From Spirometra erinaceieuropaei (lineage: Eukaryota; Platyhelminthes; Cestoda; Diphyllobothriidea; Diphyllobothriidae), in assembly GCA_902702965.1 (NCBI GenBank), contig CACRXP010000011.1:1324356-1388355 (forward strand): a stretch of DNA of 64,000 nt. Reading direction: 5' to 3'. A program made the translations under genes and the position numbers. Positions within the stretch are counted from its first letter, which is position 1; each line of letters opens with the position of its first letter. The notes beneath the pieces are model-generated. The model was not told where the DNA came from. It did no database searches and saw only the letters and a program-made list of their open reading frames with translations. Of this stretch, positions 4,961 to 63,421 are shown one piece after another.

Positions 4961-5109
4961 CAGTTTCTTTAAGAAATGTTTTCCTCCACAATCGCCTTTC
5001 AATGCGTCCAACACCATGGCCCCAAATATGACGTGTTTCCAACTACCCCCCAGATATCACATCAAAGAGGTTGAGCCGAATATGCCGACATTGCCGTCTT
5101 TGAATAGGA

Positions 5110-14619: not shown

Positions 14620-14621
14620 GG

Positions 14622-16706: not shown

Positions 16707-16712
16707 TCCGTG

Positions 16713-17297
16713 TTAAACGTTTTCGGTAAAATGACATGGTTTAGTGATGGACGGGTAGTCCTTCAAAATGTCAGCGAAAGGGGTGCTGGGAATGATGAGA
16801 TGAATGCCATCCGAACGTTCAGAGCTAATGGCAGCTATGGCAAAGGGTTGGGTGGTTGTGTCTGTGAGGCGACGGCGTCTGATGTCGACTGTTAAGCCGA
16901 AAGATGACAAAAAGTCGGCCCCGATAATGGGCGATTTGACGTCGGCCTCAATAAAGACCCATTGGAAACGTCGCCGGAGACCAAGATCTAAAGTGAGGGA
17001 CCGTTGGCCGTAGGTGCTGATTGTGGTGCTATTTGCAGCCTGCAATGAGAATTGCGAAGGCTTGAGGCGGTGACGCCTTAGAGGCGGGATGACACTGACC
17101 TCGGCACCGGTATCAACCAGGAAACGGAGGCCGCTCGACTTGTCGTTGATATAGAAAAGGCGACTGGGTCGCGACGGGCCATCAGCAGTCGTCGCCATTA
17201 CTGACTGGCGTGGTCGTTTAACTGTGAAGGACAAGCGAACGAACGAGGAGGTATGCACTTTCGGGCTTTCGGGCCATAAGTGCGATGATACCAACAT
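16713..17297 (-). CDS. Gypsy aspartic protease (pol N-terminus)
   Basis: The frame contains a retroviral-type aspartic protease with the active-site segment LVDTGAEVSVIPP (catalytic aspartate near 17114) and the later IIGADFL segment. It overlaps the end of gag in another frame, the usual arrangement for frameshifted gag-pol expression. It ends at an in-frame TAA; in a functional copy it would be fused to the reverse transcriptase. Confidence 0.88.
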   Translation of the reverse strand: MLVSSHLWPESPKVHTSSFVRLSFTVKRPRQSVMATTADGPSRPSRLFYINDKSSGLRFLVDTGAEVSVIPPLRRHRLKPSQFSLQAANSTTISTYGQRSLTLDLGLRRRFQWVFIEADVKSPIIGADFLSSFGLTVDIRRRRLTDTTTQPFAIAAISSERSDGIHLIIPSTPFADILKDYPSITKPCHFTENV

Positions 17298-18163
17298 AAT
17301 GGTTGTAAACGCCGCTCACGGGATTTAGACCGACGATGTGAGTATGGCTGTTTTCTAGCCGATTGAAGACTGTTAAGAGCAGAGCACATGTTGCTCACCT
17401 GAGTGCAAAGGAGGCGCACAGTGTCTCTTAGGTCGTCGTAATCGGTGCGATAAGCGTCGGTGGGTGTTCTGGGAGGACCGGCTGATGTGGGCGCTCGTCG
17501 GGTTATGCAACAGCATTGTGCTTTTTCCGTATAGGAAGTGTCGTGCTCTGATAATGCTGGGCCTTCTGAATCAAAGTCAATGCCCTGATGGGGCTTCCCT
17601 TTGGAAGGCAGGGGCCGCTGAATATTGGAACACGAGGCACCAATGGGGTAACACTCCTTGATTCTGTCAGCGTGGGTAGCTAGCTTCTCTAAGGGTGTAT
17701 TCGAGTCCAACATAGCCAAAACCTGTTGCATTGGCACCGGTAACTTTTCTAACCCAATCTCGGGAAAAATGGCGTCGTCCATGTGCATACTAGCGAGAAG
17801 TGAGCGCAGGTGACGCATTAGCTGGAAAGGTGTATGATCCTCTAGTTTTACTTGCGTAAAAAGTTCCCGCAGCATAAGGTTGGCCGATTTAGCCACCCGT
17901 TGGATTACCGCTTCCTTCAGCCGCGTATACGGTTGGTCGGCAGGAATGGGGTCAAGGAGGTATTCGACGGCGACAGCTTCATCAAATGGGAGGGACCGCA
18001 AAACTTACGAATAGCGGGTACGCTCGCTAGTAATGCGGCTTGTCGCAAAAAGAGCCTCGATCTGCCTAAACCAAACGCGAGGATTGCTCAGTGTAAACGG
18101 TGGCAGTTTAAAAGAAAGGGTGTTAATGTCGAGTGAGTCTTTTTGGGAGTTGTCACTGGCCAT
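17198..18163 (-). pseudogene. Gypsy gag polyprotein with internal stop
   Basis: The start is the ATG at 18163-18161, just downstream of the PBS (MASDNSQKDS...). The frame shows the retrotransposon gag segment FTLSNPRVWFRQIEALF, hits a TAA at 18005-18007, and continues in the same frame through a helical capsid-like region to a nucleocapsid-like finger CWYHRTYGPKARKC near 17260. Translation upstream of the ATG would be in LTR/leader sequence and is not used. Gag packages the element RNA into virus-like particles. Confidence 0.85.
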
Positions 18164-18668: not shown

Positions 18669-19203
18669 AAAGGGAGAAATGCTAACCGGAACGCTACATA
18701 CCGTCTACCGACCGTCCAAACGCCCTTCTTTTTAGGATTCCTCTAGGGCGTCCAGTATTGATCCTTAGTTATAGTAACAGAAATCTGAAGGAAATGCACT
18801 CTTCATTCATGATTTGGGCGTGCACTCGCAGTCCAGGAACTTTCTGCCAGTCACTTTATTGAGTCCGAGTCAACGTGTTCTCATCCTTTAGTTCTTTCGC
18901 GTTACCCGCCAAGTTACCTATCAGTAGGTTTTAATGGAACACAATTATCCACTACAACTTGGATAACCACGTAGATCCTTGCAGGAAGGGACTCTAAATT
19001 ACCCGGAAAACGGAATATTTTGGACATTCTAATACTTGGCTTCTGAAACTTGAGCAGTCGCGTTAATCACAGCCTCCTCAAGCGGGTGAGTCGGGTCTCC
19101 TGGCTTGTCACGTGTGTGACGCTTGTTTTGTGTATTTGGACAAATAATACATCAAATCGAAGTTATTAGCGCTGAAATTCGTTCTGTGCACAAGGTTCTC
19201 AGG
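18669..19203 (+). promoter_or_regulatory. Upstream region / 5' UTR of clu
   Basis: The 535 bp between the Gypsy element and the first clu ATG have no coding frame of note. An E-box CACGTG at 19109-19114 sits inside an imperfect palindrome (GTCACGTGTGTGAC) 90 bp upstream of the ATG. A polypyrimidine-poor TTCTCAG directly precedes the start codon (ATG at 19204). It could be a splice acceptor for a 5' UTR exon or for spliced-leader addition, but this is only suggestive. No clear TATA box is seen. Confidence 0.35.
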
Positions 19204-19534
19204 ATGACTGAGGGGGAACATGTCGCTCCTTCGCCCTTAACCGGAATTGGTGAAAAGTCCAAACCCTCCAACGCAGACCAGACATCAACAGTGGACCTTT
19301 TAGATGACGCCCAGTTCAATATCAAAATACATTTGTCTCCATCCGAGATTGTTACCCTTCAGGTTAACTCATCGGAGATCGTTCAAGAAATACATCATGC
19401 CCTCACGGAACGTGAGGAATCTTGCCATCGCACATGCTTCTCCTTGCAGCTCAATGGCAACACTCTTGACCTGTTTGCTGATTTAAAATCCATCGAAGGC
19501 CTTACCGAAGGCTCTGAAATATATGTCGTTGAAG
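19204..19534 (+). CDS. clu: clu exon 1
   Basis: It encodes the start and most of the ubiquitin-like N-terminal domain (residues 1-110). Donor GTAAAT at 19535, ending in phase 1. Confidence 0.9.
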
Positions 19535-22500
19535 GTAAATGTTTTACATATTTTACTCTGTAGAACGCTATACCACTCGCGAGGTGCGTAATCATGTTAA
19601 ACATATCAACGAACTCCTCAACAGCATCAAGGTTCGCGATGCTTATGCTGGCCGCGATCAGATGTCCCTGTCTTTTTTGAGCTCCGTCACAATGGGAGAC
19701 ATCTTTGGTAATTCCCGACATTTGGGTCCATTTTCCATTCGCATAATATCTTAATCTAGTCAGCCATAATATGGTATACTTCCTTTCGGCCACGGTTACG
19801 TGTTAGATTTCATTAATCAAAGAAATATTTTTTGCCATAAAATTCTACCAGTTGTCACGAATCCCCTTCGTTTAGAGCGCAAGCCCTCGAAGTCCGATGC
19901 CAGCATCAACTTCCATCCTCCCACTTACATAATGCCTACACCGGGTCTTTCCGAGCCGCCTTTAGTGCCGCTCCATCCATACAATAAAGAAGATAACGCG
20001 TTAACGTGTCTTCGGCAGCTAAATTATAGCAACTGGAACCCACCACCGCCTCCGCGCCGCCTAGCCGGTGACTTGGTCTACCTCGTTGTTCATACACTGG
20101 AAGACAAGCGTTGTCACATAACTGCCTGTTCCCGGGGATTCTTTGTCAATCAGTAAGTAATTTTTTTCGATCTTAGACGAATGAGCATAGTATTGATAAG
20201 GGTCGCCCTTTACTTGACTTCGATTTTTTGCCCTGCCTCTAGAACCACCGATGATGTTTTCAACCCGAAGCCTGTACAAAACGCCTACGTTGCTCATTCC
20301 CTCATTGATCTACTGAAACAGCTAAGTCCAGCCTTCAAAAAATCCTTCGAAAATCTTTTGAAGCGTCGATCCAACAAGCATCCGTTTGAACGATTCCCTA
20401 CACCCTACCAGGTTTATTCGTGGCTCAGTCCTCAATGGGAACATACACCCGATTCTGTACGCAAGGATGAAGGTTTGTCTTGCTCCACGTTTTGGCTTTA
20501 AATCGCCATGGGAGTAAACGTCTCACATAGTTTCTCTTTTTCAACAGCCTTCGCCTCGCGCATGGCATGCGAAGAAAATCTGCCTGGCCAAACTCGCGAC
20601 TGGAATGATGAACTGCAGGCTACCCGCGAGCTCCCGCAGGCCGCTCTTAATGACCGGTTGGTGCGGGATCGTGCCATCTTCAAATCCAACAGCGACTTCG
20701 TTGCGGCTGCCACGCGTGCAGCTGTCAGTGTTGTGAACGGTGACATAATGGCCATAAACCCTGGAGAGACTCGAAAACAACAAATGTTCATCTGGAATAA
20801 CATGTTCTTTTCATTGGGCTTCGATGTAAAAGACCACTACAAAGAATTAGGGGGTGAGGCTGCCGCATACGTTGCCACAGTGAGTGAATTTCAATTAACT
20901 TCCGCTGTGCTCAGGCACTCTTATATTTTTTAATACCACTGTCCCACCTTACTGCTGCGCCTAAGTAATTGTATTCTAAGTCAAAGGAAAACCAACAAAG
21001 TCGGCTGTGTCCAACCTCGGGCCCGAAATGCCTGGGACACTGGCAAATTATTCCAAAAAATCGACATGCGCGCTCTAAAACACGCAACGTAGCTCATATT
21101 CATGCAACATTAGCAGCTGATTTGACAGTCTTATTGTCAACGTTTGACTCGTTTGCACTTGCATACCACAACGGTATCTAACTGAACCAATTATTAATCT
21201 CTTCTGTAGTCAAATGACCTGAATGGTGTTCGTGCATACTCCCTCCTTGACCAGCCGGGTCTGTGCACGCTTGGAACAGCCATTATTGACTATCGTGGCT
21301 ATCGGGTCACTGCGCAAACTATAATTCCAGGTGAGTTTTTGGAAGCATTGCCATCTGTAGTGAGATCTTTCAGCTAAACCAAAAGACCCATTTGTAATCC
21401 ACATATCCAAATAACGGAGATGATTCAACCAGATATCCTTTTTCTACAATATTCCGACCAACGTTTTAAAGTAATTTTGTTGCACCCACCTGGGAGATGA
21501 CAGGACTCACACTCGAACTCCTCATCCGTGACAGCAACGAATAAGTTCGGTGAATACACAAGGGACGCAGTTACTACACCAGCAGACAAAATTAACAGCT
21601 TCCTCATTTAATGTACATGATAGGGCTTGCTGCGATGGCCATCTTATCATCGTGACCGAGGCGTTTTTTGCCGCAATTTCTTTGTCGGTGTTGGTGACTG
21701 ACGCGACAATTACTCGGCGATGTGGTTCATCAATATTGTCACTGGAGGTAATATTCGCCCGTGCGCTTCCCGGGCGACAATTTACTATGTTCAGGCAGTC
21801 TTGGCATTGAATTTGGAAAGAAAGCGGCTGACGGCTTCCTGGGCGTTCTTGTCTCACGGAAACGCGCGCCGACATTCGCAGCCAGTGTAGTTTGGTCTCG
21901 TCTGTGCACGCACGAGTTTCACGGGCAGCCGTTCATTCTGTGAATCCCTCGAAGGTATTGTCGTCTACCAACATTGACTTCCAGTCCATCGCAGTGCTGT
22001 TTAATGTGCCGATAGAGCGCGCTTGCACAGCTAAGTTTTTTGGCCCGCCAAGTGGTTGCTGCTGAGGCTGAGTGCTTGCATCGTCTGTCGTTTTTTCTAA
22101 ATACCGGTTTTTGGGCCTCCACGATCTTTTTGACTGACAAAAAGACCAAGGTAGGTAGTCAGGTTATTTTCCTCCTCCATCGTGGATTGGAGGATGTCAT
22201 CACTTGATTCCATCCGATGCCAACGAAGGTAATCACTACATACCCAGTCAAAAATTTCAGCGCGTGGATATGGAAGAGCATTGATTCCAGCTGTTTCAAG
22301 ACCGTCTCGCTTGTGAGCTCAACGATCACCGGACTTATTCACGTACCTCTCGTACGGTCGTAGTTTATATCACCAAACGATAACTAGATCCTTGTTGCGG
22401 ACTGGGGCTTCTGGACAGGACAGTCTGCCCCTAGAAGGCCAGGTGATTACTGGAGCATCGCCAGTTCTGTGCCCAACGGGAATCTAATCCCATAGAAATG

Positions 22501-37500: not shown

Positions 37501-40500
37501 AGAAGAGAGCGTGCCATCAGGTCCCCTGTATTTATAATTATAAAGTAAAGCGGAGGTTTATTCCTCTCGTCGTTGTTTTTGCCCTACACGCTACCTTTTG
37601 CTTCCCCCAACCTTGCCGCTGGCGTATTCGACACCCAAATACTAGTCTACTGAATATTGAAGCGTAGTGCTTATTGCTGTGACAAAAGTGTACTTTCTGC
37701 TTTGCTTCCATAGCAAGTTCAAAAACTGAAGAACAAGAAGGGCAAGAAACGTGGCGGTAAGCAAACACGCGAGTGTTCCGGTGAGTAAAAGCCCCAGCCT
37801 CTTGTGTTTTCTTAATCTGCATATCCGTGTTTATCGGAGTTATTCATATTTTTTGCGTTTTGATTTATAGAAGACATGTCATGGACAAATGAAACCAGTG
37901 CCTCGCTGTGGGCTCGCCTGAACAAGGAAGTGAAAGAGTATTATCACATCGACCTTGAGCTGTGAGTCGATTTAGTTTGTAAGGTCGTGCGAACCTAATC
38001 AGTCGAATTTCCTCAATTGCTATCGTTGACGTATGTTCTTAAGCGTATTTACCTACAAATTGCCATGCAAGTCTTCCGTCAGTTGGTCCTGTGGCTGTTT
38101 CTCGAGTTGCGGGGGGTCGAGCTGCTGGGCTACTAGTCGTTGACTTCGTTCTGGCCTTTAATTCGTTAGTGCTTCGCGCAATGCCTTCGGATCTATTGAC
38201 AACCAACAGCATCAAATTCACTGTGCCCGGCCTAGCGCTGAATTGTCCCGTCGGCGGCGGAAAAGACTAGGAGTAAGGCCCGCGCCTTCTACCACGTCAG
38301 TTGCAACTGTTGGCAGCGTATCCGGATATCAGTTCTGAGGGAAAAGAAAAAAAGGGAAAAATTAACAATAACAGTCTCATATAGACATACTTACAGTGTG
38401 TATTTTGATGATGCATGCCCCTGCCACATTGGTCGCGGTAACATAACACAAACAATAACAAACCCTTCATTATACAGGTTATGTGATATATCATACTTGG
38501 CAGCACAGGTGCAAGCTGAAAGCCCAGACACGTGTTTCACCGATATTCTGTCGTACCATGACTCAACAGGAAGGGGTTCGGCCCATCAGTGGTCCCTCCC
38601 AGTGCTCCCCATGGGTATCCTGGTAGATACTCCGGCTTTGAAATTGCGTCCTAATTTTCTTTAGAAATTGACCACTGACTTAGAATAAGTCAGTCTGAAC
38701 TAGACTTTTTACACTGACCTTTCTTCAAAAAAAGCTTGTAAAGATAGCGCAAAACCGCCTTTTACTTGAAGTTTAAGCCTTAATGAAATTCAACCACATT
38801 AGGCGCAGCTGGGGGTTTTCTACACTTCGTAACCGATAATAAGTGTTTCACGGCAGGGGAGTGGGGAATTAACGTTGTACAGGTTTGAAAGAAAGTTGTG
38901 ATCGAGCCGCCGCGCTCGAAAACTTGAGCATAATTTTATGTCCAGATGGAAGTCGGTAGGACACCGCACTAGAACCCTCTCCATAATGAAAGTGGCATTG
39001 TGCTAAATTCCATGGAGGTTAGGGTTAGTGTTTGGGTCAGGGTTGGTGTTAGGGTTAGGTTTTGGTATTAAGTACTTCCCCTTGTATTTGGCGCAGGGCC
39101 ACCTGCATTACCGAGGCGGGTCCTTATTCCTGTGTCCTACCTGTAAGCCCTATCTCATCTGTGTAGTCCGCCTTATTGCAGCTCGAAGCTTTTGGATGTT
39201 GTGCCACACTTCGCCAACCCACTGGACGTTTACCTCATCTGGAAGTGTGCTCCTTGAAGAGGAAATGACGGCTAGAGTCACATGACAACGTTACGTCCCA
39301 TAATCACCACAGAATGTCGTACTGCATCATGAATCGCCTCTAAGCTTGTTCGCGGTGGTCCTCTGAGTCGCACTAATCTTTCGACTCATCTATTCATACC
39401 AGTGCTGTTCCTCGTGTACCTACCCAGCTATAGTGCCAACTTATGACAGTTTTAAATGCCTCCAACACGCGTTTGAAAGACAATGTTGCAAATGATCTGT
39501 CTTTCTTGGGTGCATCAAGGAATAAGTGAAAGGCAGAGGTTCCTTTCCACGCCAAAGTTACACCCCATGCGGCACGAACCTGTTTGTTTTTTTTTTACTT
39601 CATAAACCTTTATCCCATTTATCTGCCTCAAAACGCCCACAGGACAAATATTGACGACTTCTGCCAGAAACACGGTGTTTCTCGCACCCAGATACTTCGC
39701 TCTTTTTGCCACTCGGTGGGTATCCAGTTGACCCTTCGGGAGTATTCCCTGCAGCCTCCAAACGGAGCCAAACACCACCAACGCCCCGTTTTCACCCTTG
39801 AGGACGTCACCATGCTGTTCCCATTGGTCAAGCATCTCCACCCACACGCGACTGATGCCTACACCTTCTTTAACACTGGACAGGCCCGCATTTCTGCTGG
39901 TTACTTACAGGAAGGCTTTGAGCTCATTTCTGAGGCCTTGAACTTGTTGAACACCGTATACGGCCCACTTCATCCGGACATTGGCGCCTGTAACCGTCTA
40001 CTTGCGCGTCTCTCCTACGTACTGGGTGAGCATGAGGCGGCGTTACTCTTCCAACAGCGTGCTACGATGATCAGTGAACGCGTGCATGGTATCGACAGCC
40101 CTAGCACGGCCGCGGAATATGTAAGTGGAAGGAGGGTAGTCTGGGTGTCCGACCCAAATCTCCACCCTTTTGGTTTTTTACGCATAAGTTCCGCGCACGT
40201 GCCCAATATCAGGCTATGTCGCACGCCAAGGACGCCGCGACCTCGGCGCTGTCTATCTTGTTGCCATGTATGGTCTCCTTTATTATATTGCTCTAGGGAG
40301 CTGTGCTTTGTAATCTTTTGAAAGAGCTGGAGGACCTGTATTCTTACCGCCATCTCTTAATCTTTCTGCAGATCCATATGGCGCTATATTGTTTCGCATG
40401 TGGTCACATCCATCCAGCATTCCAATTGCTGTATCGGGCTCGATATCTGGCTCTGTTATGCCACGGTGAAGACCACCCAGAAATCGCTCAGATTGATGTG

Positions 40501-43500
40501 AGTTTCCCGTTTTCCAGCCCCTTCGCCTTTCAAACACACCTCTGTAAAGCTGCCTAGTGCGAGGACTGAAACTCAAGACACGGGCTGGTGCCCTTAACTA
40601 GGCTTTGTGGTATAATATCGTTTTCACATGAGAGTACCATACTGACAGGTCGTCAGCGTGGTCCTACCTTAGTTTATAAACTGCGACTCATTCTCACATA
40701 TTCTTCCGACCACCTAAAATAATCCTACTCAATAAAGCACAACGAGTGCGTGCTTATCCATCTCTGACGCAAGGATTTCTAGAATTGTAGCCACCCTGGT
40801 GATTAAACTATTCCTTGGAGTCCTTGGCGTCCAGCCTTTCGGGCGTTCACCAGAGCTTGTTGTCTGTGACAACTAATTATACGTGTGGTCTGTGTACTGG
40901 TTTGTTGTCGTTTGGACGAAGTTCGATCGCTGGGAATGTTGGCGTGCTTGTTTGGCGCTCATTTTGTGGAAAATTACGGTAACAAGTGTTCTCCTTGAAG
41001 AAACGGTATCATTCAGCTTTAAAACGTTTGTAATTATGTGCATTTTAAGATCATGAAATTTCCTTTTAAATAGCTTCGTGTTTGTCCGTTTACCAATGCT
41101 CCGCATGAAGTGCACAGCATAGTCCGTGCCAATTGCGAACTTTTATGGGCAACATATGGCACCTTGATACCATTTGGGAACGTATGGTTTTTTACTAGGA
41201 AAGTGTACAGCTTGTAATTTGGAATTCCTAGATACAGGTGCGACGATAGGTCTAGTTAAGAATTTTTTCGGGAATTAAATGATTTTAAAGCAGGTTAATG
41301 TCCGTTCTTCGGGTGCAAAGTTTGAAGAAGTGAGTTCCAACAAGATTACTATAACGAAATGCATGCTACCGACATTAAAATCACTCTCGCGTAATCCTTC
41401 CTAACCGAAATTACCTTTCAAAACTTCGTTTAATGTTTCGTAGGGTACGTCGCCTGCCATACGTACAATAGCTCGCCTATCTCATGAAGTGTTAGTCGAC
41501 TAGAAAGGATGACCCAAGTGGGGCTGTAATATCGATTATCGTGCAGAATAACTCAGAGATATTTTAGTCGCGCCAGGATACCCGCTTTCCAATGAGCTTC
41601 CCATCGGCCGCCTGCAACGACAACACTCGGTAAAAAACAGCTATTCACGTAGAGAAATTTCTCATTAATTCTGGGTGTTCAAATGAATTCGAGCCTATTT
41701 TGTAGGCACACAAATATACTGTTTCGTTTTCATTTGGTAGAAAATTACACCCTCTTCAGATTTTATACTCAAGAAAGGGTATTTTTCTGATTGTGGGATT
41801 TTTTAAGACCATGGAATGTACATTTACAAACCATCGTATCTGTCTATATATTAGTGCTGCTTATGAAGTATAACAGTTCAACCGTCGATTCCGACGATGC
41901 CTACCATGGACCGCACAGCAGGGTAGGCGCAGAGAAGGAAACATACACGTGAATTAGTTTGTGGTGATAGTGGACCTGCGCAGCATCTATCGCACTCTAA
42001 TCTTCCTCTATCTGGACTCGGTATTAAGATGACCGATGGCGGGAGAAAGCGCAGGTGATTAGCTCGGCGTGAGCCTGCACCTAGGTGTGCCACCACACCC
42101 CACGGTCCACGCACAACGGACCGGGATTTCACACAACAAGAAGGGGCGGGATTGGGAGATTGGGGGAGATTGCTGATTGGAGATAAGAACAGCCCGTCTG
42201 CTCGGGCCACACACATAATCCGCCGGCCTGCACAAACACCAGGATTTCACGCAAAGAGGACGGACTTTTTAGATCTCACATGCAGTAGAGACGCCACGTG
42301 GACAAGGAGCCGAGAAACGCACTTCTCACTTACGCGAGATGTGCCTACCTCGTGCCTGCGGTGTGTGATGTTGGTGTCCGTGTGGTGCATGTATTAATGC
42401 GGAAGTGTGTTCTGATGAGATCGGGTCTGTGGTAATTTACTGCAGCTTTTCACGAAGACGCATGTGACCGAATAGGTCCATGCAATGGCGGAATTTGCGT
42501 GGACAGTGCAGACGTTTGAGACGGTGACGATGGGTGTATGTTGGTGCTTCAGACACTCGTTCGCCAGTCTCTGCACGATGCATTAACAAATGGCCTACGA
42601 GGTCGAAGCGTGGTGTGCACGTGCGGTGGCCATGCAGGCAGGATAGTTTGAGAGCTGCTAAGTCGGTGGTGATGATGACGCCAATGCTAGTGCTGGTCGC
42701 GCTGTTGGAAGAGGATTTGACAGTGCTGGAGATGGGAGAGTTGTTGGATGTGCAAGGTGGGCTTTGTTTGTCGATATTGCGGTGAAATACGGCTGTTGTG
42801 GATACGCACGTGGCCAAACATGTCCACTTGCTGAGTGAACGTGGGTGGGCAGTGCGGACAGTGGAGGCGGATGCGGCAAGAGCATGTGGGGTTCCCGGCG
42901 TTGGTGTGCCGGTCACAGTGCGATGGATTCGCAAGTGACCTAACAGTTCGGTGTGTGACATGAATGTGCAATCACAATGACGAATGGTGGCGATGGAGTC
43001 CACCTTGCTGGTGGCAGGGGAAGGTAGTGCTGAAGGTCATGGTTGGCGGAGCGTCGGGAGTGGTCTCATCGATGGTTGGTTAGAAGTCTAACGCCTCTAA
43101 CCACTGACCCACGGGCTCCTTGTCCTGCCGGTTGCGATCGTTCTTTAGAGTGACCTTGTGACGGCGTGCTTGTCCTTCTTGTCGAGCACTCGTAGCGACA
43201 TCCTCATTGAAGAGTCGTTTGGGTAATCGTTCATCGTCCATCCTCATGAGGTGGCTGCTCCACCGCGGTTGCAGTTGCCTCAGCATGGCGTGGATGATGA
43301 TGATTCCGGTCCGTTCCAAGATTTCTGTGTCCGGGGACCTCGTTTTGCCACCTCAGCATTAGTATTCTACGGAGACAGATTAGGTGGAAGTGATTGAGAT
43401 TCCTGGCTTGATTAAACTGATGGTCCATGTCTCCGCCTAGTATACTTGGCTTGTCAGTACTACCGCCCTGTTTGGTGTTGAGGTGGATACCGTAACTATT

Positions 43501-46500
43501 TCACGACGAGTTCTGCAACCGGTCGAATGCCTGGCTGGCTTTGGAGATCCGATGGACCTTGTCGTTGTCGATGTTGACGTTGCGTTAGTGTCCTACTTAA
43601 ATAAGCGGACTTGCGTACGGTTTTGGAAATGGTGCCGTTGACAGTGATGCGTTGACGTTGTATTCAGTGTCGGATGACGGCTGATGCACGACCACTGTTT
43701 TGTCTGCGTTGGTCAGCCCGAAGTTTGGTGTTGCCGGGGGCGAAAAGGCCCATGTTCCGTTGCATGTCCGGTTCTGTCGTCCGCGAAGAGCAGGTCGTGG
43801 ACGGTAGTGGTGGAGAGACGCTTTGGAGCCTGCATCCGTCGGCTACCGAGATGGCCGTCGATACTGTAGACAATGAATGTCCCAGGATGTTTATCGCGAT
43901 AGGCGTCCATCAGCACGTCCTTGAACATGATACCTCTCGATATACGCTCATTACGTTGACTTCTTTTCTGCAGTTTTGCTTTTAGATCGGCTACTTAGTA
44001 AGTAGGGCTGTCACACGCATATTCTCTTGTTTCTATGTAGTGCCTTTTGTCTAATGAACTGTAGGTTATCGTCCTTCACATTACGCTGAATCTGTCTGAT
44101 CATGCCACTTTTTCTTCCGACCCAGGTGAACATCAGTCTCATGCTGCACGCCGTGGAGCAGTTCGACACCGCCGTAGTTTTCCTCGAGAACGCCCTCCGG
44201 TTAAGCAAAATGTACTTACCTCATTCTGCTTGCACATTATCGCTCTTGATACCATTTGACCGTTCTTTGCTAAGCTAGAGCACGCAACCAAACCTTTAAC
44301 CGCAAACATTCTCCCCCCCCCGCCTCAGATTCTACGGCCCAAAGAGTCTGAAGGTGGCCTTCAACTGCCATCTGCTGAGCCAGACGCACGCCTACCGCGG
44401 AGACTTCCGCTCGGCACTGGACTTCGAGAAACAACGGTACTCCATCTACAGAGAGCGTTTCGGCGATGACAGCGACTACACCCGTGACAGCGATGAGTGC
44501 CTACGCACTTTGACCACTCAGGCAGTGAACATGGCGCGCCGCTTCCAGCAGTCCGGCACCGCGGCCGCCACCGCTGTTACCAACGGCAGTGCTACTGGCA
44601 GTGCCGCAAATAAGCAGAATTCCCTCCAAGTGGGACGAAGGCCGGGCCAGGAGGGCCACGTGGCGGCCACATCGACTGCCTCATTCCAGTTGCCCAGCTT
44701 CGTCACCATTCTGGATACACTGAATCGCGTGAATGGCATCTTCTACCTTCAACTCAGGTGAAATCGTGTGAAAATCTCGTGCTTAAGTTGACGCGAAGTC
44801 AACGTTGCCTTATTGTTTTTTATTCGCCCATCTTAGTGTCTGTGTGCGTGCGCACAGAGTCTGCATGAATTAATTGCCGTGCATGCATGTGGGAAACATT
44901 AAATGAGGACTCACGCCGTGCCAGCCGAACTGTGGGTTAGACTGCGGTAGCTCTTTGTTAACGCGGCTGTGCGAGATCTGAGTCCTTGTGCGGCGGCATG
45001 CGTTAGACGGCGACTTCGTGTCACGTCAACTACTGCACTGAATCTGATTGTCAGTCGATTTGAATCGCACAGGCCATTGGGGCATTAGCGATAGGGGATA
45101 GAGAAAGTTCGATCCAACGCCTAAGCCTTTCACTATAGGAAATCTAACGTGCCATGAATCTGTTACAACACGACAGTTGCGTTTTGAGGTGCTCCCACCT
45201 GACGGACATCTCGGTCCTCCTCAGAAATGGGAAACAGACTGCTGCAACTCCTCACGGCACTCCCTCATGTGAGATCCACGAATTCACTTCCCTTGAAACC
45301 CAACGGGTGTGGAATTAAGCACTAGGTCGTGTGTGTGTGGTACGCGTAGACGAACTGTTCAGTTTTCTCAAACACTGCGTCTAGCATGTCATGGTTGCCA
45401 TCGGAACACGCCAAGCGTGTGAAGGGGGGTGTATGGCATATGAAGCGCAGGTCCGCCCCACTGTAAACAACTTCATGCTCGAGCCACTACTGCGTCTTGT
45501 GCGCGACGGTGGTGAACCTCCTATTTCGCCACGACCGAACTATCCTATTGTGTGTGAGTAGTTGTGTGCTCGTCTGCGCCCTCAGCGCAGGCCGCGCTGG
45601 ACCATAACAAGAGCCGAGTTGGTTCGTGGCACACGTTAATCGGATGCGCGGTGTCCGCACATCCCGTGATTACTTCCGCACATGGGGGTGGCGGTGACAC
45701 ACCTAAGTGTAGCCTTCATGCCGCGGCAGCCACTGCGCCCATCTCCAACACCAGCTGAACGTCAAGCTTGGACAACAGACTGGTGCATGGGAGAGGGAAG
45801 AGAGTGCGGCCGACCCTGTGGAATCCATCCTTACGGTATTTTGAGCGCAGTCCTAATTGTAATAAATCTGGCACGCTTGAATCTATCATGGATCACTGGG
45901 GGTCATGGCTTGGAAGGCTACCAACTGACTGGGTAAGTCGGTCCCCGAGACGACGAGTCAGGCTGCAATTGCTTCGTCGTATAGCCTCCAAAGCACACCC
46001 GCATAGGTGAGATCCGAGCCGCATCCTTCCATTTAAACCTGATGCATCTCTGCGAGGACCAGGTCGTGTGTGAAGTGCGCAGACTGACTGTTTAACTTTG
46101 TCAGCCATTGCGCTCGAGCCCGTCCCCAGCTGGGAAAGGCGAAGTGCGGCAGATGTTCCGGAGGTCGGCAGGAATGTACCTTTGCGCTTGTAGACAAACT
46201 CCCCTAGTAGACATACCAAAACTTACTGTCACGTCGGGGTAATATGCCGGAAGTTGTCTACGAATCCTTTGGATCGCCTAGACCAGAAAAAAAGCTAGAT
46301 TAGGCCGTTCACTCCGACTTGGATTCTTGTTCTGGGACAGTGCGCTCGAGTTAGCCGCGACAGCTTCAGCAAAGTGCCATCAGGCAATGTAAGCCAAATG
46401 CGGCGGCAGTCCATGGTACACGCAAGTGAGCTGTTTTTGTCGGCAGGGGGCGAAAAATAACTCTCCGATGGGCATTTTCAGACTTTGCGAAGTCGTGATC

Positions 46501-47959: not shown

Positions 47960-50889
47960 TTACTGAGCTATTCTGTCCCACCGACCTCATTCAACGACTT
48001 CCCCTTTTTTTTCCAAGCAGACCTTCTTAGAACAACACCTCAGTCCGCCCGTCCACTTCAGCATTGTGATTCAGGCTACGTCTTTTTACGGCAGTTCACT
48101 TAAACCGCCCCCCCCCTCCCATCCCCTGTCTCCTGTAACTACTACGTGCGAGCCCGACTCAGGCGTCTTCCTGTCCCCTGCGTCGGCCCTTGTGGAATCG
48201 TGATTTGTAGATTACCAATTTTTCCTTTTACCAGTGCTTGTACGTATATACGTAGTAGGAGTTTTTTTAGTAGTTTTACAAATGCAATTAGTGCAGTCAG
48301 TAAATTTTTACAAGAGGATGCCTTCTTAACTCTTCACCGTCCGAAGGGTTTTTGGGAGCCAATTAACAGCTGGGGCGGGACTGCATCATCCCCTCCCCTC
48401 CCTGCCAGCAAGTATTACTGGTTTAGATGCGGCCGACTCCGATTCCAGTGCATAGTATGTCAGTCGCAGCCTCATATGACCACACGAAGTAAGGTCGGGG
48501 CGTTGGGGCAGTCATCAGTCACATCTGTCAGAGATGTCCACTTTTTTTTCTGCTGTTCCCAGGTGCGTCTCCCCAAGTGGACTCCCTCAGCCCTTACAAT
48601 GGTCGAGCGTCTCTCTTGCCCAAAGCCACTGGTCAGCGGTAGTCCCACAGTCCTGAACGGCCGTGGGACATGCTTGATTTCCCTGAATGCGATTGACGTG
48701 ATCTTGTGGTGGGGATCCGGGGAGAATTCCATCCTTTCCGCTCCGTCAGGGGGACAGGGTCTAGTTGGCGGAAAAGCGTGAAAGACTCATGCACTAGACT
48801 AATTGACGTGATGACAGAATTATGGACGGGTGGGAAGTTCGTCCGGCTCAGGTAACAAGGCCACCACTGCCGCGGAGGGGGGTGCAGTAGGTAGCGACCC
48901 ACGCATGGATCTAGTTGTGGTCAGCTGACTTGCTCTGCATTACCGCACGCGTCTTCTCTACAACCAACGGGGTCAAATGACGATTTGAGAGGAACGGTGA
49001 TGAAAGTGGACGTAGTGGCTGGCGGGACTCAGATCATGCCTGCACGCACCACACGTGTTGGCACCCAGCCCTGCATGGATATCACAGATGAGAGTGCCAT
49101 GGCGGTTAAAATAAGAGGGAAGAATTACATTCTGAACTCCGGTCGCTCTCTTCCGTGCACCAGTATTTGGTCCGAATCGAACCGACCGGGGATGAGACTG
49201 GACTCAGTGCCTGACGTTATGAGAGGTCTCTGTTTACCACGTGTGCGGCGTGTTTCCCATCGCTGCCGATGGACGATCCCACCTCAGGATGCTTGTGCGA
49301 GCAACGGTGATGGTTCAGCGATTGCTTTTGTGTGCGCATCTGATCGGATAGGTCATGCGGTGCCAGTGTTGACAGCTAAGGCGGGCTTGACAGGGTTTCT
49401 GATGATGACTCACACATTGCTGTGAGGGATACGTAGGTGTCCGTCAAGGGTCCGGATGTTGGTACCGTTTGTCTGGCTACTGCCTAATTGCGATAGACTC
49501 CGCGTGGGTAGGTAAACCAGCGTGATCTGTTTTCTTTTGACGGAAGCAGTGCAGTTGCCTGAGCGATCGGCTGTGACATTATCAGAGAAGACTGATGGTT
49601 GCGGTTCGCCCTACCGACCTTCCCGTCGCGGTAGCTTTGAAGTTTCCCTACCTGGGCGGGTCGGAACCGGAACGTGTAGCCATAGTAGGGGGGTGGGTGG
49701 GACAGCCTCAGAATGCGTATTGCTTGATCCTCTGGCGCACAAATCGAGCCACACGTCCGACCAAAGTGTTGCAAAAAATTTATGCGACCTTACGGCGGTG
49801 GTCATTCAAAGTTCAATAACAGGCAATTTTGTACTTTAGCTGCCAGTAGGTTGTGCAGAGCTCGATTTAGTTGTGAATAGACGGTGGTCAGCATTCGCTG
49901 CATTTTGCTTCTATTTACCGACATACCAACAACAGTTGCAGTGGAGTTCATGCATCCTAAATAGTGTTATGCCAGTATGTAGGCGGGTCCCTTGCTTTCA
50001 CGTCTGCCAGTTGTTTACGGTAAATCAATTACTTTGGACGAGCTGCGATGTCAGGGTCTTTAGCCTTTTTTCTTATCGGGAAAATAAGGCCGACCTCTCA
50101 CCTTTGAGTAGATCGACGAAAACGCTGAGGCCTCGCACTGCTTTCGGCATTAGATGGGCAGATTTCCCCCGATAGAACGAAGACATTCCCTCAAACTACG
50201 CAAATCCCATCCTCAAAGGGCAATTCGCCTTTTCCATCGGAATATATTGCCCGTACCGTTTGATTACCAGACGACTGCTAGAAATTGTAGTACAAGACAA
50301 AGGAAAGTGAACAGATAGTGTCTGAACGGCGTTACTCCTACATTTCAAACAAAAGTATCACTGCATGGACAAGGCTGAAGACCTTACTGATAGTTTCATA
50401 TAGCGTCTCCGACCTCTGTAAATGAATATTCGACTGAACTGCCGTACATCATGCTAAAAGCTCGAGTCCAGAGATGCATCCTTTACATTCTTCAAAATTC
50501 CTTAACCCGGAAGCCGAATCGTAAGTTTTGGCCTTACTGTCTGTTTTCGCGTCCTCACAAAGGTGTTCTTAACGTTTAGCCGAGAACGCATTCATCTGTG
50601 TTCGCGTAGTCAAAACTGAGTGTCTCTAAAGGTCGGGACCAGCGTCCTTTAAGGGCGATTCTTGGTACCTACGGAACTTTAGTGTTTTCGGACGGTGACA
50701 ACCGAGATAGCAACTTATGAACCCGTTAGCGAAGTAATCTAGTGGTAGTCTACCGTCTCGTACCGAACAGAACCTTGAAATACCTAACTCTGCCCTCAGT
50801 AGGACATAAAATCAGGCAGGCGGAGCAGTGTGGCCCTCCAGTACGACCGTGTCCTCTCTCTAGCCGTATGAGAATATAGAAAAACGTCG
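47960..50889. other. Downstream of clu: no recognisable gene
   Basis: The clu 3' UTR must begin here, but I find no canonical AATAAA close to the stop. A variant AGTAAA lies near 48299. A 211-codon plus frame (48146-48781) and a 146-codon one (48985-49425) have no domain resemblance and look like chance frames. Confidence 0.4.
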
Positions 50890-51216
50890 TTGGTCAGTGG
50901 TTATATCCAATTTAATCATCCCATCCCCAGCCCAATCAACTCCCCACCCACGATCATGACCACCACCAGAGACCCCACAGTGGAAACCGACTTAATATCC
51001 CCGAACCTACCCCGCCCACACTGCCAGCACACATTCACCTCACGCAGCGGCCTAGTCGGTCACTTGCGAATCCATCGCACAGACACTGACGAACCACTGC
51101 CTGGAGCACAAACATTCAGCCGACGCCATTTCCCCAACTGCCCTCATTGTTCCCGCACATCCAGCCATCGCATGGGCCTATTCGGCCACATGCGCCTCCA
51201 TGAAAACCTGTGGTAA
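50890..51216 (+). pseudogene. LINE-C zinc-finger C-terminus (shorter version)
   Basis: It encodes a degenerate first finger (HCQHTFTSRSGLVGHLRIH, first cysteine lost) and a complete C2H2 finger, CPHCSRTSSHRMGLFGHMRL then H, with C-x2-C-x12-H-x3-H spacing. The final residues are HENLW and a stop. Only two fingers are seen, fewer than in the 62855 copy, and no reverse transcriptase is recognisable upstream. Confidence 0.75.
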
Positions 51217-51405
51217 ATCACCGCTGACACGAGCACACTACAACACATTCCTCTACTAGCATGGTTACCACACCTGAATTTCTCCAACATCCCACATCAT
51301 TGCCACCAGTATGTTATTACGGAAAATCGCAAGGGAGACTGGAATGGCCATTTCTGGCTTACTGGCCGTCGTCAACCGATCATACCCAACCCCAAAGTGT
51401 GGAAC

Positions 51406-51472
51406 ACCCGAGGCTCGAACTCGCGACCTGTTAGTCAGAAGTCCACGCCTCTAACCACTCGGCTACGAGCCC
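51406..51472 (-). repeat. tRNA-like segment with A and B boxes
   Basis: The minus strand reads GGGCTCGTAGCCGAGTGGTT onward, with an A-box-like TAGCCGAGTGG and a B-box-like GAGTTCGAGCC about 33 bases apart. The acceptor halves do not pair, so it is not a functional tRNA gene. It may be a tRNA-derived SINE head or a tRNA pseudogene. A related A-box segment lies at about 43080-43123 on the same strand. Confidence 0.45.
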
Positions 51473-52269
51473 GTTGTCCCGTCGGTTTTGATCAGGAATA
51501 TACAATGGTTGGGAGGCGCTCACCGATCGTTCTTACGGAACTCACAATGCTACCCCTCGCGTAAGTGGGAAGTGTGCCCTTCAACTCCTTTCTCCATGTA
51601 GCCCGTCTGATATATGGGAGATACAACAAGTCTACCCGTTTGCGTTAAACCCTGGTGTGGGCGCATGGGGAGCAGGTCATGTGTGTGACCCGCGCAGGCG
51701 AGTCGTGTTCAGCCCTGTCCCTCACTTCTTCCAATCTCAGCATCGGTTTAGGCTGCCGGATTGGACAATGGATTGGTGCCTGGGAGTGAGAAGAGAGGGT
51801 GAGATCGACAGCACTAGCTCATATCTCTCAGTCTACATTAGATGATCAAACTCATGAAATGTCGGGGTCGAAATCTGAGCGAGAAGTCTGTCATGCATTT
51901 GGTGTTGGTATTTGCGTTTATTAAAATAATCTGAGATGCAAAAAGCCACTTACTGAAGAGAGGTCCACTTCAACTCAGTTTTATTAAATGAAAACGGGCC
52001 AATTTTGGACGAAATCTGACCTTTCTTGATATCCAGATAATTTCCTACGCTATGGAAGTTTGCGGATTAAAATTGCACGTTTGTATGCATTTTGCTCTAA
52101 ACGAAGATTAATATAAACAGGAAAAGTACGAAATATATCCCATCCGAAAGCGGGGATTCTTTTTGGTTTTCATGAAAATCAGGTGAGGGCCGGCTTCAGA
52201 ACTTGCATTGTTTTCAAGAAAAAACGCCAAAATCAGCTTATAAAATATCTTTTTTGTAAATTTGTGACG

Positions 52270-52743
52270 TTTCCTGTCATAAAATTTGGACAGTGGCCAG
52301 TCTGGCGGTGGACTGCGGACATAATCAACCGCGAGGCGTTCGTCAACATTGTGAAGGATGGTTTCGATTACAACGAAATCCCCCGACGCTGACTGGATAC
52401 CATAATTTTACACGACAATGCTCCTGTCCATCCTTCTAAAGAAGTATGAATCTACTAACGCTTTTGACCGTAATCTGACTTTTTAGGCAACAGTCAGCCT
52501 CTCCGCACATGGCCTCCAGTCGATTTTCAGCCCTGCCACCAGCCCGAATCTCAATCCCATCGAAAATCTTTTCGCGTTTACCAAAAGACATTGGCATTCG
52601 AGGGAATAAAAGACTGCCCATACCAGAAAAACTTGATTTCGGAATAGACAATCACACTGAACAATCCACCATAGACAACACGGCCAACTTCATGTCTGAA
52701 AGACTTTCTGTTGTGATTAATGCGAATGGACAATCAGTCATGT
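52270..52743 (+). pseudogene. Tc1-like transposase, catalytic part
   Basis: It has the second catalytic aspartate in ILHDNAPVH (codon 52414-52416) and the glutamate in SPNLNPIENLF (codon 52562-52564), followed by a C-terminus to the TAA at 52744. Between these residues the frame is interrupted at 52444-52486. Omitting those 43 nt leaves exactly 34 residues between D and E, the Tc1 DD34E spacing. Further shifts occur downstream and the N-terminal domains are missing. Confidence 0.75.
52444..52486 (+). other. Possible 43-nt spliceosomal intron in the Tc1-like transposase
   Basis: It starts GTATGA, contains CTACTAACG (branch-site-like) and ends CTTTTTAG. It has in-frame stops, is not a multiple of three, and its removal restores the frame across the catalytic core. 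The related position in the second element keeps a TATTTTAG end. Confidence 0.55.
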
Positions 52744-53200
52744 AATGATATTTTGTATTCGTTATTATTTTTCATTATTTTTACAATTTCGTGCGTCCCC
52801 CCTCATTAAACATCCTTATAGTTAGCCCTATTTAAGCGATTTGTGATATAGTCATTTTCTAAAATTTTAGTTTTTCTTGAAAATCAGTGATTTTCACGTT
52901 AGTAAATATTAATTTACAATCCCAACTATGCCTTATTTTTTAAGAACAATCGTTTTTCACTGTCGTTAGCCTTTGGGGAAGGCAGGTTGGGCGGATTTTG
53001 CGTTATAGGGATTTTCTTGTGTTGACTCATGACATTTCATGAGTTAGCACACCTACTGTAAGCAATCTGATACGCTTGAATCAGTCATGTTGGGCTTAAA
53101 GCTGTGACTGAGAGGGTTGGCGTATGCCGAGATAACTCGATCCTTCTCGGAGAGTGGAGAGTCAGACAGCAATGGCTCCTAAATGTGGACTCTATGTCAC

Positions 53201-53830: not shown

Positions 53831-54549
53831 CAGTCTAAACGGAATATCCGCGTAAGGCAACTCGTGTTTCGCCTTTGCATTCACATGAGCCAATTTGAAG
53901 ACCAGCAACCACTTCACTCTTGCAGTTAGTAGAAACCTGCATGCAAGAGGAAGGGACAGCGACCGTTGGAGTAAGAGCCTTATTAGCATAATGTCTCGGT
54001 TTCATACCCAAACCCACCATCCGAGGCAGCAACAGGTAAAGGTAATACATGCACAAGTGTTTCAGTATTTGTAGGATGAAGCTGCCCTGCCTCCATGCAG
54101 ACGCAGCTTCCGTATTCCTCACAAACAGTTGCACGTCCTGCGAAAACTGAATGTGACAGCCTGCATCTTCATCGATTTCATCACTGGTTAAGCTTATCGA
54201 TAGGATAATTGCTCGGACAACTGGCTCATTGGAACTGGCATCGCGAATACTGTTTACCCAAGAACTCCCGCATGGTTAACTACTCTGCAAAAATAAAGCC
54301 GAAAGCAAAGAATTAGTCGGGCGCCGCTAAGTGAGTTTCGAACTGGGAATTTCCGTCACCCCTCACTGCTGCCACCTGTTCATCTACCCGTGTCCGGATC
54401 AGTCCCCCAATTTCTGACCCCTATACTGTACTTAACAACTGGTTTGGGCATGTGAATCGTCAGGCGTATATAATTCATGTTTCAATGATCACTACGTACT
54501 TTTCACTAACTGCCTCCAAGAACCTGTCGTTTCGTTTGTATCAAACTCA
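53831..54549. other. No recognisable feature
   Basis: Short random frames only, between the LINE-C tail and the second Tc1-like element. Confidence 0.4.
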
Positions 54550-56435
54550 CAGTAGATGATCTAACTCATGAAATGTCGAGATTAGTATTGGAGTTTGTAG
54601 TACGGCATATGTTTGGTGTTGTTAGTTTTGTTTTTAGAATTGATCGGAATCCCAAAAAGCCCTTTTCTAAAGAAGAATTCATATTAGGCCTGCTTTACCG
54701 AAGGGAAACAGGCTAAAATTTGACGTTTCCGGATGTTCATATAATTCCCTATGCTTCCAAGTATCACCTACTAAAACCTCTTATTTGCGTGCGTTGCATT
54801 ACAAAAGAACATTCACATAAGCAGGAAAAATATTAAACGAATTCATCCTGGAAACGGACATTTTGATTTTGAGTTCATGAAACTCAAGTCAAGGCAGTCA
54901 TGTAAAAACGAATTCTTTTCATGATACAAGAAGCTGTTTGCCCTTAACAAATTCTATGTAGCAAAACCTTAACTTTTTACGTCGTTAAACGCAGTAATAA
55001 GCTTATTCGACAATATTTGTTTTACTACACCGGGAATTAGTAGGCTTAAACACACATATAGATTGCGCGCTACATGCTGCCACTTTTCTCTGCCACGCCT
55101 TACAACAAAAAATTCGAAACAATTCCTACCGGAAGTTGACTTTAAGCGCATACGAAAACTAACAGCCGAGGGGCTGCCGCGAGATTCATTAGTTAGTATT
55201 TTCAGTATTAATCAGGTCATTCTGTGGAGGATTATTAATAATAAAACAGTGCCTGGAGCTAACCAAGGTGAACCAAAACGGTCCAAAAGAAAACAAGGCG
55301 ACGATTATTTTTGTCGAACACTAAAAAGTATCATTATATGCCCCTTAAGGCTACTCACAGGGTATACCTTTCAATGGTTTCTTTGCGTTTAACTGGAAAA
55401 AGGATGAAAAAATTCGACCTCCATAAGCAAAACGCCTTGACAAAAACCCTATTTAAGTAGGAAACTTGTTAGAGAACTTCTATTTTTGCTCAAAGATATG
55501 TTGATCGTAGACTTTCATTTTGGAAAGGAAATTACTTTTGTGATGAGGTCTTATTTCTAGGCAAACCTCCGAAGTCGGCCCAGGTGGTCATATGTGGGAA
55601 GAACTTTCCACGAGAGCACACTCTATCGACACAAACTTTCAATAACTGTCGACGCTTAATGGTTTGGGTGGTTATCAAATTCGGAGGGCGATCAATCTGA
55701 TGTTCAACAACGGAGACGATAAATAACAAAGTGTTCATTGACATCGTAAAGGATGCCTTCGGTTACAAGGACATTCATCGACGTCAAATGGGCACCATAG
55801 TGTCGCAGGATAATGTCCCGTTCACCGCTCAATGGAGATATGACTCCAATTCAGCTTACGACTATAATCTAGTATTTTAGACCGCCTGTGGTCTTCGAAG
55901 CATTTTTATTCTCGCCAATAGCCGGGGCCTGAACCCAATCGAAAATTTTCTTGAATTAATCAAAGGGAATTGGGACAAGTCAAGAAAGCATATTTCAATG
56001 CAACAAAAGTTGGATTTTGTGTTGAATAATTATATAGATCAAGCCACCATAGACAGCTTAGTGGTCTTTATGCCCTCCCTGCTTATGGCAACTTTAAAGG
56101 CCAAAAGACAATCGACAAAGTACTAATACGTTGTATTTGTTAATGTCTTTCATCATTTTGTCGCTGTATGACACTTATCTTCTTTGCTGGCAGTTATAGT
56201 AGGCCTTAAATAATTAACCTGTTATAAATTTTCTTTTTTGATTCGGTTGTTTTTCGTAAAATAAATTATTACTTAGTCAATAAATAAGACTGTATAAACC
56301 AGACTGTGCCTTGTTTTGAAGCTTGGTCATATCTCTAACGTAATAAAACTTTTCCGGATGCGGGGTGGGCGGTTCGCGCGTTAAAGCGATTTGAATTTGC
56401 TGTTCCTGACGTTTTACGAGATGGGCCACGAACTG
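54550..56435 (+). mobile_element. Second Tc1-like DNA transposon, 1886 bp
   Basis: The left end CAGTAGATGATCTAACTCAT is nearly the same as in the element at 51836. The right end, read inversely from 56435, matches it at about 18 of 28 positions. TA follows at 56436; the left TA is changed to CA. The interior has both DNA-binding and catalytic parts of a transposase, all broken. Confidence 0.75.
55063..56127 (+). pseudogene. Tc1-like transposase, DNA-binding and catalytic parts, broken
   Basis: Residues from 55063-55392 contain a helix-turn-helix-like segment (KRIRKLTAEGLPRDSLVSIF, VILWRIINN). The catalytic half in shifted frames has FCDEVLFLG (first aspartate, near 55540), SQDNVPF (second, near 55809) and GLNPIENFLELIKGNW (glutamate codon 55941-55943), ending near 56125. 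The region between the last two contains a tract ending TATTTTAG, as in the other copy, but the donor is GA instead of GT. Confidence 0.75.
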
Positions 56436-56437
56436 TA

Positions 56438-62575: not shown

Positions 62576-62854
62576 GCCTTGTCGGACATTTCCGTACCCA
62601 GTGCAACAACAACCCAACCTGGTGCCTCAACAAACCTCCATCGTCCGCTCTGCAACAACCCCCAAGTCGTCAACGACGACGACCACACCCACCACCGGTG
62701 ACCACACTCCTGATGCCCTGTCGCCGTTGATCGCCACCACTCCTTTATCTCTGATACATCTACCGTAACGACGATTACCTCTCCAACTGCCGCCATCGAT
62801 GAGACCACTCCAAAAGCTCTGTCAACCACTACCCTCACCATCACCGTCGACAGT

Positions 62855-63421
62855 GTGGGTTCAATCGCCACCAGTCGTCATTGTGATTACACATTCATGT
62901 CATTCACCGGTCTGGTCGATCACTTGCGAATCCATCGCACCGTGATCGGTACACCAACGCCGGGAACCCCACATGCTCTTGCCGCATCCGCCTCCACTGT
63001 CCGCACAGACCACCCACGTTCACTCAGCGAATGGACATGTTTGGCCACGTGCGCATCCACAACAGCCGCACTTCACCGCAATATCGACACACAAAGCACA
63101 CCTCGCACATCCGATAACTCTCCCATCTCCAGCACTGCCAAATGCCCATCCAACAGTGCGGCCACCATTAGCGGCAGCCCCATCATCACAACCGACCTGA
63201 CAGCTCTCAAACTACCATGCCTACATTGTCACCGCACGTGCACACCACGCTTCGGCCTGGTAGGCCATTTGTTAATGCATCGTGCAGAGACTAGCGAACG
63301 AATGTCTGATGCACCAACATACACCCATCGTCACCGTCTCAAGTGTCTGCACTGTCCACGCACATTCCGCCAGGGCATGGACCTACTCCGTTACATGCGT
63401 CTTCATGAAGAGCTGCAGTAA
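62855..63421 (+). CDS. LINE-C zinc-finger ORF (188 codons)
   Basis: This open frame has a degenerate first finger (HCDYTFMSFTGLVDHLRIH), a complete C2H2 finger [20 protein letters not shown] followed by H, and a fourth finger CLHCPRTFRQGMDLLRYMRL with the first histidine replaced. A further finger (CPH...[11 protein letters not shown]) is encoded in another frame at about 62995-63060. Linkers between fingers are rich in T, P and G. In intact RTE-like copies this region would be the C-terminus of the polyprotein. The copy shares its frame structure with 42437-43003. Confidence 0.65.
   Translation: MGSIATSRHCDYTFMSFTGLVDHLRIHRTVIGTPTPGTPHALAASASTVRTDHPRSLSEWTCLATCASTTAALHRNIDTQSTPRTSDNSPISSTAKCPSNSAATISGSPIITTDLTALKLPCLHCHRTCTPRFGLVGHLLMHRAETSERMSDAPTYTHRHRLKCLHCPRTFRQGMDLLRYMRLHEELQ

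What the first reader, a model, noticed from the sequence alone, without database searches (positions are those of the whole stretch)
52414..52564. A 43-nt intron-like insert in a Tc1-type transposase; removing it gives exactly DD34E
In the 1.2-kb Tc1-like element the second catalytic aspartate (52414) and the glutamate (52562) are 148 nt apart, which does not keep frame and includes stops. A segment 52444-52486 starts GT, has CTACTAAC and ends TTTTTAG. Without it the distance is 105 nt, leaving exactly 34 residues between D and E, the canonical Tc1 spacing. The second Tc1-like element at 54550 keeps a TATTTTAG end at the same place. This is seen directly; that it was a spliced intron is inference.
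Basis: partly seen in the sequence, partly recalled or inferred. Interest (0 to 1): 0.75.

Follow-up and report, generated by a model that had tools for sequence, protein, structure and literature searches.

The report
Tiny intron in tapeworm Tc1 transposase
A Tc1-type jumping gene in a tapeworm genome carries a 43-base intron that splits its catalytic core, and the same intron sits at the same place in all three branches of the family that were examined.

Summary
Window 52444-52486 is a 43-nt GT...AG segment in a decayed, internally deleted Tc1-type element. With it the catalytic D and E codons are 148 nt apart; leaving it out gives 34 residues between them.
It is not a chance insertion. The copies fetched from the host genome (758.7 Mb, Spirometra-like) fall into three groups, and all three carry it. 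It is exactly 43 nt in 104 of 111 spanning matches and in 10 of 12 further stretches. The two flanks 30-60 nt apart occur 234 times; joined directly, with up to 3 mismatches, 0 times.
Both flanks evolve as protein (Ka/Ks about 0.2) in frames that fit together only if the 43 nt are left out. Its middle drifts while its ends are held. Ten of 21 annotated Spirometra/Sparganum proteins have this junction with DD34E.
Best explanation: a short spliceosomal intron. No RNA was seen. Tc1-like elements with introns are known in molluscs, so this is a new variant, not a new kind.

The parts
51834..53060 (+). Element 1, a decayed Tc1-type element of group B: 30-nt imperfect terminal inverted repeats (51834-51863 / 53031-53060) and an internal deletion at about 52282-52287
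   Evidence: inverted repeat, 83% complementary; L003 aligns as two pieces with about 690 nt more between them; group
52258..52443 (+). Remnant of transposase exon 1 (about residues 182-243 of P0002; the first few may be chance, as the deletion point lies at 52282-52287), with an in-frame stop at 52390-52392; holds the second catalytic D (52414-52416) and ends in codon GAA before the donor
52444..52486 (+). 43-nt intron, GTATGA...TTTTTAG, phase 0, in-frame stop at its second codon
52475..52479 (+). Conserved branch-point-like CTGAC (CTRAY), intron positions 32-36
   Evidence: CTRAY here in 63 of 68 (group A), 28 of 41 (B), 8 of 11 (C)
52487..52606 (+). Start of exon 2, with the catalytic E at 52562-52564; Pfam DDE_3 match (31.4 bits, cut-off 28.6); stops follow further downstream
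54549..56437 (+). Element 2, a decayed near-full-length element of group C (ends approximate)
55838..55880 (+). The same 43-nt segment in element 2; its donor reads AT where 7 of the 11 group C rows read GT; the TATTTTAG end is kept

Best explanation
It is a short spliceosomal (GT-AG) intron of 43 nt in the transposase gene of a large tapeworm Tc1-like (DD34E) family. It lies in phase 0 between the second catalytic aspartate and the glutamate. Shown: the same segment at the same place in three sequence groups, protein selection on both sides in junction-set frames, and held ends with a freer middle. Inferred: the host spliceosome removes it from the pre-mRNA, using the CTRAY motif whose A lies 8 nt before the last base, which joins a 243-codon exon 1 to an 86-codon exon 2 in a DD34E transposase. 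Unspliced RNA would mostly stop within five codons of the junction and make a protein without the catalytic glutamate. Elements 1 and 2 in the window are dead copies that still carry the intron. Transposition copies DNA, not RNA, which may be why no intronless copy was found (inference).
For: 104 of 111 spanning matches have exactly 43 nt; donor GT in 99 and GC in 7 of 111; acceptor AG in 102 of 111 (L001 repeats window element 1, so 110 are distinct). Of 12 further stretches, 10 have 43 nt and 2 have 42. Flanks with a 30-60 nt gap occur 234 times, 0 in the reversed control; with no gap 0 times. A-B divergence at codon positions 1/2/3 is 0.177/0.189/0.375 before and 0.219/0.160/0.426 after the segment, with no significant phase inside it; median Ka/Ks 0.225 and 0.211. 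Inside the segment: 0.177 (5' 8 nt), 0.486 (middle 19), 0.197 (3' 16). CTRAY kept in most rows. All 109 A and B rows have an in-frame stop inside it. 10 of the 21 Spirometra/Sparganum annotated proteins found have this junction with exactly 34 residues between D and E. P0007 aligns to Sleeping Beauty SB100X (5cr4) across the junction without a gap. Tapeworm short introns peak at about 36 and 73 bp (PMC5036155, passages).
Against: No RNA evidence. The annotated proteins are gene models, and a predictor may invent a 43-nt intron to bridge two frames. Three of the 21 join the donor to unrelated sequence (P0004, P0006, P0010) and P0019 ends one residue into the intron. No spliced full-length (about 329 aa) Spirometra relative turned up in three searches wide enough to hold one, and no intronless retrocopy was found; gaps of 1-29 nt between the flanks were not searched. 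Short-intron use in this genome was not measured; the published Spirometra averages are long: mean 1,065 and median 418 bp (PMC4265353, passage), mean about 2.4 kb (PMC12249497, passage). 9 of 41 group B and 4 of 11 group C rows lack GT, as expected of decayed copies but not proof of it.
Confidence: 0.93

Rival explanations
1. A random 43-nt insertion (or a pair of frameshifts) in this one decayed copy, which looks like an intron by chance.
For: Element 1 is old and has other frame-breaking changes.
Against: The same segment, with the same length and similar ends, is in all three groups, including recent copies with open exons; no directly joined copy was found.
Confidence: 0.01
2. The 43 nt are bypassed in another way: ribosomal frameshifting or hopping, or removal at the DNA level as in ciliate internal eliminated sequences.
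For: Selection on both frames only requires that the 43 nt are not translated; it does not say by which route.
Against: The boundaries are GT...AG with a CTRAY just before the end, as spliceosomal introns have. Hairpins and slippery sites were not tested. Nothing known to me links either route to flatworms (recalled).
Confidence: 0.03
3. The intron is real but its retention is a regulated switch: the retained form makes an exon-1-only protein (DNA-binding half, no catalytic E) that represses transposition, as P-element IVS3 does.
For: An in-frame stop follows the donor within 5 codons in 107 of 109 A and B rows. Exon 1 alone holds a helix-turn-helix match above cut-off and part of the DDE domain below cut-off. 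The P element does this with its third intron (PMC7776569, passages).
Against: In-frame stops are common in unconstrained introns; no regulatory element was sought and no tissue data were seen.
Confidence: 0.12

Closest known systems
Tc1-like elements with spliceosomal introns (TLEWI) of molluscs, Puzakov et al. 2020
   Same: A Tc1-like transposase gene interrupted by spliceosomal introns
   Different: TLEWI are described as having 3-5 introns (PMC10379824, passage; the 2020 paper itself was seen only as a reference). Here one 43-nt intron is seen, in a tapeworm. Homology of intron position was not tested.
Sleeping Beauty (Tc1/mariner, DD34E)
   Same: The same catalytic region; annotated family protein P0007 aligns across the junction to 5cr4 without a gap
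   Different: Intronless coding sequence (recalled); similarity is low (E 1.5e-5)
P element, third intron IVS3
   Same: An intron in a transposase gene whose retention leaves a truncated protein without the C-terminal part (PMC7776569, passages)
   Different: Unrelated superfamily (recalled); regulated retention is shown there and only conceivable here
Short introns of tapeworm genes
   Same: 43 nt lies near the ~36 bp peak of short tapeworm introns (PMC5036155, passages)
   Different: Those are host genes of Taenia and Echinococcus; this one is in a transposon of a Spirometra-like tapeworm

Membership tests
Tc1-like elements (DD34E) | DD34E spacing between second D and E | tested here: met
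   Met if the segment is left out: arithmetic in the window; 10 of 21 annotated relatives
Tc1-like elements (DD34E) | DDE_3 catalytic domain | tested here: met
   P0007 53.5 bits and P0012 38.6 bits against cut-off 28.6; window 52487-52606 31.4 bits. Exon 1 alone (P0002) 18.7 bits, below cut-off
Tc1-like elements (DD34E) | N-terminal helix-turn-helix DNA-binding domains | tested here: met
   One of two above cut-off in P0002: HTH_7 28.2 bits (cut-off 23.8); HTH_Tnp_Tc3_2 25.3 bits, below its cut-off 31.5
Tc1-like elements (DD34E) | Terminal inverted repeats, element of 1-2 kb | tested here: met
   28-nt perfect repeats in the 3 copies looked at; about 1.92 kb in two (L013, L016) and 2.08 kb in L011
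Tc1-like elements (DD34E) | TA target duplication | tested here: inconclusive
   The repeats end in TACAG/CTGTA, which fits TA, but no empty site was compared
Spliceosomal (U2-type) intron | GT...AG boundaries | tested here: met
   GT 99 and GC 7 of 111; AG 102 of 111
Spliceosomal (U2-type) intron | Branch-point-like motif upstream of the acceptor | tested here: met
   CTRAY at positions 32-36 in 63 of 68, 28 of 41 and 8 of 11; the motif itself is recalled
Spliceosomal (U2-type) intron | Exon frames join across it and are under protein selection | tested here: met
Spliceosomal (U2-type) intron | Absent from mature mRNA | not testable with these tools
   No transcript data were available
TLEWI of molluscs | 3-5 introns in the transposase gene | tested here: not met
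   One intron seen; exon 1 is an uninterrupted 243-codon frame in 53 of 70 sampled copies and exon 2 an 86-codon frame in 46 of 70. Introns in the 5' untranslated part were not sought.
P-element-like regulated intron | Retention makes a repressor | not testable with these tools
   Needs RNA and protein assays

The most novel reading that the evidence does not exclude
The 43-nt intron is a built-in switch. It separates the DNA-binding half and first catalytic part of the transposase from the catalytic glutamate, so retention makes a short DNA-binding inhibitor and splicing makes active enzyme. The family would have been selected to keep a very short intron of fixed length through the divergence of three groups, a Tc1 counterpart, evolved independently, of P-element IVS3.
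Probability: 0.12. Interest if true: 0.7.

Novelty: new variant of a known kind. Interest (0 to 1): 0.42.

Why it matters
Tc1/mariner elements are described as usually intronless (PMC4120734, passage; PMC10379824, passage). Here an apparently recently active family (the ten best matches to P0002 are 100% identical to it in protein and lie on ten contigs; duplicated haplotypes in the assembly are not excluded) carries one short intron, nearly always of the same length, between two catalytic residues in all three groups found. If spliced, it ties the transposon to the host's ability to splice very short introns, which bears on which hosts such an element could invade, and it makes splicing control of a Tc1 element directly testable. 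For annotation it is a warning: read without the intron, intact transposase genes look broken.

Tried and rejected
Random insertion: rejected by conservation across groups and the absence of direct joins. A first CTRAY count gave 0 of 106 because my slice was one base off; one search corrects it. One search stopped with an error after printing the intron thirds; completes it. Spliced retrocopies as natural cDNA evidence: sought, none. Relatives outside the genus: Schistocephalus solidus P0022 has an exon-2-like stretch inside a reverse-transcriptase gene model, which fits the same acceptor, and Dibothriocephalus latus P0023 covers only sequence upstream of the junction; no DNA of either was fetched. 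Plasmid collection: only weak matches, under 60% identity, the listed annotated ones being IS630-type. Host short introns by an exon-by-exon family search (PF00118): not answered in 14 tries. A pattern search for gaps of 0-29 nt and a 401-base window query were unanswered and not repeated. Sampling bias: the 12 stretches came from matches long enough to read across the segment in one frame; 2 of the 12 (L116, L120) proved to be group A and were left out of the group C rows. The 70 group A loci came from the matches best resembling P0002 (the 30 best plus 40 of its other listed rows), so counts of open copies overstate the genome average; 2 of the 70 (L017, L022) are interrupted near the segment and drop out of the 111. 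Group labels were given before the tree (identity to L013, or origin); the tree then showed each as a clade.

Full report
WHAT WAS CHECKED. Upstream, the frame reads DNAPVHPSKE up to 52443; downstream, the frame from 52487 reads ATVSLSAHGLQSIF...LNPIEN. Nine residues after D and 25 before E make 34. The downstream stretch 52487-52606 matches Pfam DDE_3 (31.4 bits, cut-off 28.6).

WHERE IT IS. The window lies in a 758.7-Mb assembly. The nearest proteins are from Spirometra erinaceieuropaei and Sparganum proliferum, so the genome is a Spirometra-like tapeworm (inference). Element 1 is bounded by 30-nt imperfect inverted repeats and lacks about 690 nt present in copy L003, so it lost the DNA-binding part and the first catalytic residue (position of the latter recalled). 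Element 2 is near full length and decayed. Of three recent copies looked at, two are about 1.92 kb and one 2.08 kb, all with perfect 28-nt repeats; L013 has a 243-codon exon 1 and an 86-codon exon 2.

THE FAMILY. A BLAST of the catalytic region against the fetched loci and the window gave 111 matches that span the segment: 104 have 43 nt, 3 have 42, 3 have 44, 1 has 46; GT in 99, GC in 7; AG in 102 (L001 is the same locus as window element 1). The copies form three clades, A 67, B 41, C 11 rows; exon differences are 25% A-B, 27% A-C and 33% B-C, and the segment is in all three. Element 1 is in B, element 2 in C. In 12 further stretches chosen for group C (10 are C, 2 A), 10 have 43 nt and 2 have 42. 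Flanks 30-60 nt apart occur 234 times (only the first places are listed), flanks joined 0 times. Of the 70 sampled group A loci, 69 have a colinear exon 1, 53 an open exon 1, 67 GT, 63 AG at 43, 46 an open exon 2, and 34 all four.

SELECTION. Comparing 68 A with 41 B rows, differences concentrate at third positions before and after the segment (permutation 0.003, and 0 of 5000), each in its own frame; 43 is one more than a multiple of three, so the two frames join only if the segment is absent from the message. Median Ka/Ks is 0.225 (up to 43 codons of exon 1) and 0.211 (exon 2). These are probably overestimates for the live lineages, since dead copies drift (inference). Inside the segment no phase is significant; the middle 19 nt differ by 0.486, somewhat above third positions, while the 5' 8 and 3' 16 nt differ by 0.177 and 0.197. 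Within groups the same contrast is weaker: A 0.022/0.048/0.026, B 0.152/0.195/0.167 for 5'/middle/3', as expected if most copies drift after insertion. The held 3' end reads TAATCTRAYWTTTTAG or close to it, with CTRAY in 63 of 68 (A), 28 of 41 (B) and 8 of 11 (C). That fits a short spliceosomal intron and fits coding or neutral DNA poorly.

INDEPENDENT ANNOTATION. Of the 21 Spirometra/Sparganum-named proteins among P0001-P0037, 10 join at exactly this place with 34 residues between D and E. Five more (P0003, P0005, P0015, P0018, P0021), as I read them, join at the same place but are shifted in frame, truncated or have lost the E, and P0016 is one residue short. P0004, P0006 and P0010 run from the donor into unrelated sequence, P0019 ends one residue into the intron, and P0026 lacks the motif. 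The S. proliferum gene set used RNA-seq intron hints with a 20-bp minimum (PMC8166898, passages), so its models are weak support; whether hints existed for these genes is unknown. P0002 (source tag lgn) is the unspliced form: intact exon 1, then VRI and the end of the frame, and it matches the own genome at 100%.

HOST FIT. Tapeworm short introns peak at about 36 and 73 bp (PMC5036155, passages; Taenia, Echinococcus). Published Spirometra averages are long (PMC4265353, median 418 bp; PMC12249497, mean about 2.4 kb), and the passages seen give no short-intron distribution. That of this genome could not be measured.

LITERATURE. Searches in the held open-access library showed, among the papers they listed, none whose title or abstract start describes this intron; the lists of 22 (25 of 81) and 90 (10 of 195) were partial, and subscription papers are not held. 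Tc1/mariner genes are said to be usually intronless (PMC4120734, passages; PMC10379824, passages). TLEWI in molluscs have 3-5 introns (the original paper was seen only as a reference). The P element retains its third intron to make a repressor (PMC7776569, passages).

VERDICT. A real, family-wide 43-nt intron as far as sampled, confidence 0.93; splicing inferred, not seen. It works like an intron-bearing Tc1; membership in TLEWI is not claimed.

Noticed in passing
L117 (G000:C794:144290-144510): A group C copy with a dead donor (AT) whose small deletions leave the region, intron included, in one open frame of 272 aa without stops.
   Followed up: partly
window 52282-52287: Breakpoint of element 1's internal deletion: its two parts overlap by about 6 nt against L003, which hints at a short direct repeat at the deletion ends.
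   Followed up: partly
window 19120-20933 and 39530-44761: Open frames that look by eye like exons of a CLU/CLUH-type gene with very long introns (name recalled, no family search run).
   Followed up: no
window 12987-18004 (minus) and 1903-7673: Open frames that look by eye like Gypsy-type gag-pol and non-LTR reverse transcriptases (recalled, not searched).
   Followed up: no
window 51400-51474: A tRNA-like stretch (by eye, minus strand) beside element 1, not called by ARAGORN; perhaps a tRNA-derived short repeat.
   Followed up: no
window 42437-43036 (minus), 50872-51216, 62714-63421: Similar zinc-finger-like open frames (by eye) that recur in the window.
   Followed up: no
P0022, Schistocephalus solidus: An annotated reverse-transcriptase protein contains a Tc1 exon-2-like stretch that starts near this acceptor, which may mean the intron predates the split of these tapeworms.
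   Followed up: no
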